A program made the position numbers and the translations under genes. A DNA stretch of 47,429 nt from assembly GCA_000720995.1 (NCBI GenBank), contig JOEL01000052.1, forward strand, positions 1-47,429, written 5' to 3'. This DNA is from Streptomyces celluloflavus. Its GTDB lineage: Bacteria; Actinomycetota; Actinomycetes; Streptomycetales; Streptomycetaceae. Below, piece by piece: positions 5,708-41,625 of the stretch (within the stretch, counting starts at the first letter, position 1; each line of letters starts with the position of its first letter). The notes below the pieces were generated by a model. The model was not told where the DNA came from, did not search any database, and saw nothing but the letters and a program-made list of their open reading frames with translations.

Positions 5708-5737
5708 TTGGACTTTCAATTCTAACGGGCTCATACT
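5708..5737 (+). promoter_or_regulatory. Promoter for the leader peptide/chorismate mutase transcript
   Basis: TTGGAC at 5708-5713 and CATACT at 5732-5737 are separated by 18 bases and match the vegetative consensus reasonably. The expected transcript start at about 5744-5745 falls on the A of the leader ORF's ATG, so that ORF would be leaderless. This is an inference from spacing only. Confidence 0.5.
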
Positions 5738-5744
5738 GAGCCTC

Positions 5745-5816
5745 ATGTCCCAGCAGATGACCTTCGTCTTTACCTATGGCACCGGCCCGTCCGGCTGCCA
5801 TGGTCGTTCTGCTTGA
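5745..5816 (+). CDS. Putative 23-aa aromatic leader peptide (attenuator)
   Basis: ATG at 5745 opens a 23-codon frame ending in TGA at 5814-5816. The product begins MSQQMTFVFTYGTG and contains Phe-Val-Phe-Thr-Tyr at residues 7-11. It has no convincing Shine-Dalgarno, but the predicted transcript start coincides with the ATG, so leaderless translation is plausible. It is followed by a perfect GC hairpin and then the chorismate mutase gene, whose pathway makes Phe and Tyr. That order (aromatic codons, hairpin, aromatic biosynthetic gene) is the layout of ribosome-mediated attenuation. Such a short ORF could arise by chance, so the call rests on its composition and context. Confidence 0.5.
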   Translation: MSQQMTFVFTYGTGPSGCHGRSA

Positions 5817-5840
5817 TCAACTGACAGGCAACTTCCCAGG

Positions 5841-5867
5841 CGCCCCGGGCCGACAAGGCCCGGGGCG
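5841..5867 (+). terminator. Attenuator/terminator hairpin before chorismate mutase
   Basis: CGCCCCGGGCC at 5841-5851 pairs perfectly with 5857-5867 around GACAA. It lies 24 bases after the leader stop and 57 bases before the chorismate mutase ATG. Bases 5846-5852 can instead pair with CGGCCCG at 5783-5789 inside the leader ORF, which would break this stem. The tail after the stem is only weakly U-rich. Confidence 0.6.
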
Positions 5868-5924
5868 TCTGCGTGTGCCGGGCCAATTCTCGGCTCCGGG
5901 GCCATCACCCCAGGAGACACGGAT

Positions 5925-6257
5925 ATGAGCACCGACACCACGGCAGCGGTCACCGGCACGACGGCGGCGGCCGGCGCGGGCCCCGCCCCCGACACCGGGG
6001 CGCGGACCCCGGAGGCCGCCGGCGTGATCACCGATGCCCGCGGCCGGATCGACGATCTCGACGGCCGGATCATCGCCCTCGTACAGGAACGGATGGGCGT
6101 CTCGGCCGTCATCCAGCGCGAGCGCATCGCCTCCGGCGGGCGCCGGGTGAACCTCTCCCGCGAGATGGAGGTCCTGGCCCACTACCGCGACCGGCTGGGC
6201 AAGCCGGGCACCGCACTGGCGATGACCCTGCTGGAGCTCTCCCGGGGCCGGATCTGA
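5925..6257 (+). CDS. Chorismate mutase (AroQ type)
   Basis: Converts chorismate to prephenate, the committed step toward Phe and Tyr. The product is 110 aa; AGGAGA about 10 bases before ATG 5925 fixes the start. The first 35 residues are low-complexity (Ala/Thr/Gly). The all-helical AroQ domain follows: RGRIDDLDGRIIALVQER at about 39-56, then VIQRERI and a C-terminal helix ending LLELSRGRI. The RIDxLD and R(x)K/R positions are those used for substrate binding in the family. It is monofunctional, with no prephenate dehydratase or dehydrogenase domain. The upstream leader and hairpin suggest control by aromatic amino acid supply. Confidence 0.92.
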   Translation: MSTDTTAAVTGTTAAAGAGPAPDTGARTPEAAGVITDARGRIDDLDGRIIALVQERMGVSAVIQRERIASGGRRVNLSREMEVLAHYRDRLGKPGTALAMTLLELSRGRI

Positions 6258-41319: not shown

Positions 41320-41352
41320 GTGGAGCACACAAGAAGGGAGGTGGTTCGGCAG

Positions 41353-41391
41353 ATGATTTCGCACCGGACATGTGAGGTGGCTGCGGGCTGA
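41353..41391 (+). CDS. Putative 12-residue ORF MISHRTCEVAAG
   Basis: ATG 41353 to TGA 41389-41391 encodes MISHRTCEVAAG. It is preceded by a very strong ribosome site GGGAGGTGG (41336-41344), 8 bases before the ATG. A good promoter lies 34 bases further upstream. The same frame is open from GTG 41320, which would give 23 residues but lies before the predicted transcript start. A GTG at 41372 opens a longer frame (131 residues) of poor composition that runs antisense into pdxH. After the stop a GGGC/GCCC hairpin can form. It could be a leader peptide, a small protein or the 5' part of a small RNA. Confidence 0.45.
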   Translation: MISHRTCEVAAG

Positions 41392-41625
41392 CGGCCCGTC
41401 GCTTCACGTAGTGCAGTGCCGGACCGGCGCACCACGCAGGTGCGCAGCCGGCCAATCCCAAGCAGTCACCCGACCCGCGGGCTGCCGGTTCGTCCGACCG
41501 GCCCTTCGCGCCACCGAGCGCGGGGGAAGCAGCCCGCGGGTCGTCTGCGTGTACGGACCCCGAGCCCTTCGGGACGGCCCGCGGGTGCGGCGGTCACGGG
41601 CACGCCCGAGGCGCGCCCGCCCGCG
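41392..41625. other. Untranslated stretch downstream of the 12-codon ORF
   Basis: About 230 bases up to the pdxH stop, rich in short inverted repeats (for example around 41476-41550). No supported gene; it could be the body of a small RNA from the 41291 promoter. Confidence 0.35.

What the first reader, a model, noticed from the sequence alone, without database searches (positions are those of the whole stretch)
5708..5867. Candidate Phe/Tyr leader-peptide attenuator in front of chorismate mutase
Seen directly: a promoter-like pair (TTGGAC, 18 bases, CATACT) predicts a transcript starting on the ATG of a 23-codon ORF that contains TTC GTC TTT ACC TAT (Phe-Val-Phe-Thr-Tyr). A small hairpin follows at 5778-5799. 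CGGCCCG (5783-5789) can pair with 5846-5852, excluding the perfect 11-bp terminator stem 5841-5851/5857-5867. Chorismate mutase starts 57 bases later. This has all the parts of ribosome-mediated attenuation, with codons matching the pathway product. Known: trp-type leader attenuation exists in Streptomyces. I do not recall a described leaderless aromatic leader for chorismate mutase, so novelty is uncertain.
Basis: partly seen in the sequence, partly recalled or inferred. Interest (0 to 1): 0.78.

Follow-up and report, generated by a model that had tools for sequence, protein, structure and literature searches.

The report
Phe/Tyr leader-peptide switch before chorismate mutase
In front of the chorismate mutase gene, this Streptomyces carries a tiny gene rich in phenylalanine and tyrosine codons whose translation very probably decides whether the enzyme's message is completed, and similar switches sit before aromatic-pathway genes in other actinobacteria.

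Summary
Observation confirmed; the attenuator reading is supported as far as sequence alone can carry it. The 23-codon, apparently leaderless ORF (core FVFTY) and its downstream hairpins recur before chorismate mutase (CM) in 110 of 110 Streptomyces-type loci examined (107 by pattern; 3 by eye). The second Phe codon is TTT in 109 of 110 and the Tyr codon TAT in 110 of 110, whereas neighbouring guaA genes use TTT in 0 of 849 Phe codons. Outside the genus, 47 of 75 genomes have a short aromatic ORF before CM (7 of 75 on reversed strands; 20 of 225 shuffles), and 21 of 30 have one before type-I DAHP synthase. DAHP synthase leaders add Trp (20 of 21); CM leaders rarely do (4 of 47; 0 of 107 in Streptomyces), matching the pathway branch. 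Folding predicts that a ribosome held at the Phe codons sequesters the terminator's 5' arm (0.90) and one at the stop codon does not (0.18). Transcription, translation and Phe/Tyr response were not measured. A 2005 survey reported no such Phe/Tyr element in Actinobacteria; C. glutamicum aroR-aroF is the nearest described case. A new member of a known kind, with class-wide reach.

The parts
5708..5737 (+). promoter-like pair TTGGAC - 18 - CATACT
   Evidence: sequence; CATACT kept in most of 107 relatives; NANNNT at 5-8 bases before the start codon in 67 of 67 representatives. Transcription itself not shown.
5745..5816 (+). leaderless leader-peptide ORF MSQQMTFVFTYGTGPSGCHGRSA
   Evidence: matching ORF in 110 of 110 related loci; no NCBIfam or Pfam match
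5763..5777 (+). sensor codons TTC GTC TTT ACC TAT (Phe-Val-Phe-Thr-Tyr)
   Evidence: second Phe codon TTT in 109 of 110, Tyr codon TAT in 110 of 110; guaA background TTT 0 of 849, TAT 16 of 614
5774..5803 (+). hairpin 1 (1:2, protector/pause hairpin), overlapping the Tyr codon
   Evidence: fold; 92.3% of cells paired over 67 aligned leaders
5783..5852 (+). antiterminator: CGGCCCG 5783-5789 with 5846-5852, further helices inside, apex hairpin 5810-5830
   Evidence: fold; pair counts; shuffle and swap controls
5837..5871 (+). terminator hairpin, 15 bp, loop 5852-5856; no clear U run after it in the window
   Evidence: 97.1% of cells paired, 4 pairs with changes on both sides
5925..6257 (+). chorismate mutase gene, the regulated gene
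   Evidence: NCBIfam NF005894 and Pfam CM_2

Best explanation
A ribosome-mediated transcription attenuator for chorismate mutase. RNA polymerase starts on or near the ATG at 5745 and a ribosome begins on this leaderless ORF (inferred). With enough Phe-tRNA and Tyr-tRNA the ribosome runs past the FVFTY codons to the stop at 5814, covers the 5' half of the antiterminator, and the terminator 5837-5871 forms: CM is not transcribed. When Phe (and more weakly Tyr) charging falls, the ribosome halts at 5763-5777, hairpin 1 cannot form, region 5783-5852 folds into the antiterminator, and polymerase goes on into CM. Shown here: the conserved ORF, codons, promoter spacing, mutually exclusive folds and a predicted dependence of the switch on ribosome position. 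Inferred: transcription, translation, stalling, termination efficiency, effector.
For: Element in 110 of 110 Streptomyces-type loci and directly before CM on the same strand in the 27 same-genus genomes of the class sample that hold CM; the one listed same-genus genome without the element (G473) also gave no CM match. After the aromatic codons the reading frame is not kept (11 of 107 peptides have quite different tails), so selection there is on RNA. Predicted sequestration of the terminator's 5' arm, 67 leaders: 0.90 stalled at Phe2, 0.18 at stop, 0.62 with shuffled linkers; by codon it peaks at Phe1-Phe2 (0.88-0.90), is 0.69 at Tyr and 0.2-0.5 further on. Native linkers beat foreign ones, mean 0.78 against 0.66, n=21, Wilcoxon p=4e-5. 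Codons TTT/TAT far above background. Outside the genus the same plan recurs before CM (47 of 75) and DAHP synthase (21 of 30). In Streptomyces other pathway genes lack it: 1 of 15 DAHPS-II (a doubtful ORF) and 0 of 14 prephenate dehydratase.
Against: No expression data. The window's terminator has no clear U run. Without a ribosome the fold is ambiguous: mean sequestration 0.48 over the set, and 0.92 for the window's own leader, so basal termination is not predicted clearly there. Column-wise covariation of the antiterminator is modest: 3 pairs with changes on both sides, 40 of 500 shuffles reach that, and its base helix is paired in 76.1% of cells, partly from a register shift in the alignment. 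Swap control: own linker not better than 9 or more of 20 foreign ones in 5 of 21 cases. In the probable Mycobacteriaceae (f4) the terminator is weak and several leaders stay sequestered even with the ribosome at stop. The first Phe is Ser in 2 and Leu in 1 of 110. S. lividans transcriptome work listed 8 leader peptides, none for Phe/Tyr (PMC8079986, passages).
Confidence: 0.88

Rival explanations
1. A nascent-peptide arrest leader: the peptide itself, with or without a small molecule such as chorismate or free Phe, stops the ribosome and thereby exposes the antiterminator.
For: xFTYG is nearly constant in Streptomyces.
Against: Residues before the core vary, those after it can be in another frame, Phe and Tyr replace one another, and outside the genus cores vary as FFYG, YFYYG, FYYG, FYFG, RFFSYG; that fits aromatic codons rather than one arrest sequence. 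TTT/TAT enrichment fits decoding.
Confidence: 0.06
2. A constitutive terminator with a translated or untranslated leader RNA; it lowers CM expression or makes an sRNA and senses nothing.
For: The terminator is the strongest single fold; no response data exist.
Against: Conserved aromatic codons, Trp added before DAHP synthase (20 of 21) but not CM, and a conserved antiterminator have no role in this reading.
Confidence: 0.04
3. An RNA that senses tRNA or a metabolite directly (T-box or other riboswitch).
For: Long stretches of the linker are almost invariant in Streptomyces.
Against: No Rfam family at gathering threshold in the window element or in 11 representative loci; the conserved start codon, frame up to the aromatic core and promoter spacing need translation.
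Confidence: 0.02

Closest known systems
Corynebacterium glutamicum aroR leader before aroF (DAHP synthase); Mentz 2013, Neshat 2014
   Same: Actinobacterium; leader peptide with Phe-Tyr-Phe before an aromatic-pathway gene; attenuation reported to respond to Phe and not to Tyr (PMC11802643 and PMC4046766, passages).
   Different: Controls DAHP synthase, not CM. The aroR sequence was not fetched or aligned here, so homology is untested. Neshat 2014 itself was not seen.
Escherichia coli pheL before pheA (CM-prephenate dehydratase)
   Same: Phe leader controlling an enzyme with CM activity by ribosome-mediated attenuation (PMC11802643, passage).
   Different: Bifunctional enzyme; here a monofunctional CM, a leaderless ORF with few aromatic codons including Tyr, and no U run in the window. 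No sequence relation tested.
Streptomyces trpE, trpS, leuA, leuS, ilvB leaders (Seliverstov 2005; S. lividans 2021)
   Same: Same genus, mostly leaderless leader ORFs with hairpins (PMC1262725 abstract and passages; PMC8079986 passages).
   Different: Other amino acids. Seliverstov 2005 states that no conserved RNA structures were seen before phenylalanine or tyrosine operons of Actinobacteria.
uORFC-13-1 motif before aroF in Acholeplasma (PMC8632094)
   Same: Predicted Phe uORF with terminator before DAHP synthase (section read).
   Different: Other phylum, with RBS, run of U codons; prediction only.

Membership tests
ribosome-mediated transcription attenuator | short ORF before the gene, with codons for the pathway's product | tested here: met
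   110 of 110 Streptomyces-type loci
ribosome-mediated transcription attenuator | mutually exclusive antiterminator and terminator, chosen by ribosome position | tested here: met
   in silico only:
ribosome-mediated transcription attenuator | terminator = G+C hairpin followed by a U run | tested here: inconclusive
   hairpin met in 107 of 107 rows; U run absent in the window, present in several relatives outside the genus
ribosome-mediated transcription attenuator | transcript starts upstream and ends at the terminator; ORF translated; read-through rises when the amino acid is short | not testable with these tools
   no expression data at hand
C. glutamicum aroR-aroF attenuator | homologous leader sequence and same regulated gene | not tested
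   aroR sequence not fetched; regulated gene in the window is CM, not DAHP synthase
T-box or other Rfam riboswitch | match to the family's covariance model | tested here: not met
   no gathering-level match at the element or in 11 representative loci; below-threshold matches only
arrest peptide | conserved residues of the nascent chain up to the stall point | tested here: not met
   residues before the core vary; Phe/Tyr exchange

The most novel reading that the evidence does not exclude
One attenuator plan is used across the class with its sensor codons tuned to the place of the gene in the pathway: Phe/Tyr codons before chorismate mutase (which feeds only Phe and Tyr), Phe/Tyr plus Trp before DAHP synthase (which feeds all three), with the G-U-wobble codons UUU and UAU, rare elsewhere in these G+C-rich genomes, kept as sensors. 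A whole layer of aromatic amino-acid control, including in probable Mycobacteriaceae, has gone unlisted.
Probability: 0.6. Interest if true: 0.72.

Novelty: new member of a known kind. Interest (0 to 1): 0.62.

Why it matters
A published survey of Actinobacteria reported no RNA control of Phe/Tyr synthesis (PMC1262725). If this holds, CM, the branch point to Phe and Tyr, is under translation-coupled control in Streptomyces, whose antibiotics often draw on this branch, and in many relatives. It gives a clean comparative test of how sensor codons follow pathway topology and whether wobble-read codons are chosen as sensors.

Tried and rejected
Considered and set aside: chance (controls); a known peptide family (none); a known RNA family; other copies in the same genome (R1 gave one full match at 7.5e-40; the other six rows are the antisense of it or partial hairpins); aromatic leaders before DAHPS-II (1 of 15, an ORF that looks like the end of an upstream gene) and prephenate dehydratase (0 of 14) in Streptomyces. 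Second CM copies in two Streptomyces genomes (L226, L229) showed no candidate.

Corrections to my own counts: the first count outside the genus (46 of 64 CM, 21 of 29 DAHPS) located genes by tblastn, lost most of family f18, and may hold one genome twice (G228 as L170 and L220). One search repeats it from coordinates, one locus per genome, 75 CM genomes (L213/G265 dropped, too short) and 30 DAHPS genomes (the best 30 of 104; four loci are truncated, so their upstream stretch may be misplaced). Family f18 then has 1 of 16. Two of the 47 CM peptides (L212, L279) look spurious. Reverse-strand and shuffled controls without a terminator demand are not zero (7 of 75; 20 of 225). DAHPS leaders come from four families and 14 of 21 from one (f17), so the Fisher p for Trp (3.5e-12) overstates independence. 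CM upstream regions examined outside the genus are those I fetched, not all 67 non-Streptomyces genomes with a match. The 110 Streptomyces-type loci are best matches (30 of the listed matches, 80 of 316), hence biased to near relatives. L033 was left out of alignment A1 for a 9-base insert (68 chosen, 67 aligned). For the codon background, the gene counts are small for CM (16 Phe codons). Column counts for the antiterminator suffer from a one-column register shift.

Calls that failed or led nowhere: script error, rerun; no paper; D'Halluin 2023 not held; Extended Data Fig. 5 of PMC13236596 shows further predicted mycobacterial attenuators but its legend does not name the genes.

Full report
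1. The thing itself. The ORF 5745-5816 starts 7 bases after CATACT, has no Shine-Dalgarno sequence, and holds TTC GTC TTT ACC TAT at 5763-5777. The predicted terminator state has hairpin 1 (5774-5803, including the Tyr codon), a small hairpin 5810-5830, and a 15-bp terminator 5837-5871; -66.6 kcal/mol, z -5.26, 0 of 200 shuffles as stable. If the stretch before 5778 is taken away, 5783-5852 folds instead into a long antiterminator that holds the terminator's 5' arm. The gene 57 bases on is chorismate mutase; guaA lies divergently.

2. Conservation in Streptomyces. CM is found in 195 of 199 genomes of the genus. From (30 loci; 80 named loci: by record title all Streptomyces but one Kitasatospora and one Microtetraspora) I had 110 loci. 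A pattern found the leader in 107; the other three hold it too, two with Ser in place of the first Phe and one with a longer N-terminus. Second Phe codon: TTT in 109 of 110; Tyr codon: TAT in 110 of 110; first sensor codon: Phe 103, Tyr 4, Ser 2, Leu 1. In guaA genes of 54 of these loci TTT is used 0 times in 849 Phe codons and TAT 16 times in 614 Tyr codons. Start codons: 103 ATG, 4 GTG of 107. After the core the frame is not kept: 11 of 107 peptides end in a quite different tail. A strong hairpin follows in 107 of 107 (in some rows the script took a longer composite hairpin). An RNA model built from 67 leaders finds 27 same-genus genomes in a class sample, always just before CM on the same strand; the one listed same-genus genome without it, G473, also has no CM match.

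3. Structure statistics. Terminator state: 93.4% of cells paired against 26.9-49.2% when slid; 7 pairs with changes on both sides, reached by 1 of 500 shuffles. Antiterminator: 87.6% paired against 31.6-55.9% when slid, but only 3 pairs with changes on both sides, reached by 40 of 500 shuffles; base helix 76.1%. Ensemble folding by ribosome position gives, for 67 Streptomyces leaders, a mean probability that the terminator's 5' arm is sequestered of 0.90 (ribosome at Phe2), 0.18 (at stop), 0.48 (no ribosome) and 0.62 (linker shuffled); for 39 CM leaders of other genera 0.73, 0.27, 0.41, 0.55; for 21 DAHP synthase leaders 0.73, 0.10, 0.52, 0.60. For the window's own leader the no-ribosome value is 0.92, so basal termination is not predicted clearly. 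The profile along the ORF peaks at the two Phe codons, 0.69 at Tyr, 0.2-0.5 beyond; the ranking of Tyr below Phe2 held for assumed ribosome edges of 8, 11 and 14 bases, while Phe1 fell below Tyr at 8. When linkers are swapped among 21 representatives, own linkers sequester better than foreign ones (0.78 against 0.66, Wilcoxon p=4e-5), though in 5 of 21 the own linker does not beat at least 9 of 20 foreign ones.

4. Beyond the genus. The Streptomyces model also hit a divergent leader, YFYYG, before CM in G288, and leaders MQRNFWRFYGYRP... before a gene that is DAHP synthase (NF006421) in family f17. Systematic scan, one locus per genome: a short ORF with three or more aromatic residues in eight codons lies within about 500 bases before CM in 47 of 75 genomes (reverse strand 7 of 75; shuffles 20 of 225); with a strong hairpin after it 35 of 75 (2 of 75; 4 of 225); with four or more aromatics and hairpin 22 of 75 (0; 0 of 225). 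It occurs in 15 anonymous families besides the window's own, fully or partly; f18 has 1 of 16, f12, f21 and f54 none (one genome each). Before DAHP synthase: 21 of 30 (0 of 30; 6 of 90), with hairpin 21 of 30 (0; 0 of 90), from four families, 14 of them f17. Trp lies in the aromatic window of 20 of 21 DAHP synthase leaders but 4 of 47 CM leaders and 0 of 107 Streptomyces leaders. TTT makes 54 of 98 Phe codons in CM leaders against 0 of 16 in the CM genes, and 28 of 42 against 1 of 101 for DAHP synthase. Family f4 has a PcrA/UvrD-like gene divergent to CM, which by recalled gene order suggests Mycobacteriaceae; its terminators are weaker. The other family labels are anonymous.

5. Specificity. 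In 13 Streptomyces genomes the same scan gave 1 of 15 for DAHPS-II, an ORF that looks like the end of an upstream gene, and 0 of 14 for prephenate dehydratase. So within this pathway the switch sits at CM.

6. Mechanism. Best reading: classical leader-peptide attenuation on a leaderless ORF. Shown in sequence and in silico: codons, frame, promoter spacing, the two exclusive folds, and their dependence on ribosome position. Inferred: transcription, translation, stalling, termination and the effector. Phe should be the main signal, Tyr a weaker one; C. glutamicum aroR is reported to respond to Phe but not Tyr (PMC11802643, passage).

7. Literature. Seen: abstract, outline and passages of PMC1262725, which states that no conserved RNA structures were observed before phenylalanine or tyrosine operons in Actinobacteria; passages of PMC8079986 (eight S. 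lividans leaders, none for Phe/Tyr), PMC11802643, PMC7356990, PMC4046766, PMC13236596, PMC4633059, PMC6892785 and PMC4833913; sections of PMC13236596 and PMC8632094. Searches that found no CM leader in Actinobacteria; only open-licence PubMed Central text was searched, so a subscription paper could hold it. Neshat 2014 was seen only as a citation.

8. Verdict. A real, conserved Phe/Tyr attenuator candidate for chorismate mutase. The mechanism is a known kind; the gene, the leaderless Streptomyces form and the class-wide family with pathway-matched codons appear undescribed in what I could search.

Noticed in passing
window 41327-41549 (+): Rfam match Ms_IGR-5 (RF02471), actinobacterial sRNA, 97.2 bits.
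   Followed up: no
L148, L150-L156, L231-L260: Aromatic leaders with a Trp codon (FWRFYGYRP; TRWFGYF; RWFFY) before type-I DAHP synthase in four families.
   Followed up: partly
L161-L181, L210 (family f4): Leaders such as VLNAQRRFFYGYRPAVPVV before CM, with a PcrA/UvrD-like gene divergent; probable Mycobacteriaceae; weak terminators, and none found in 8 of 23 genomes.
   Followed up: partly
leaders of all groups: TTT and TAT, very rare in neighbouring genes, are the preferred sensor codons. T-rich codons could also be kept for RNA structure.
   Followed up: partly
L226, L229: Second CM copies in two Streptomyces genomes lack the leader.
   Followed up: no
family f18 loci L191-L200, L214-L219: CM mostly without a leader (1 of 16): how CM is controlled there is open.
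   Followed up: no
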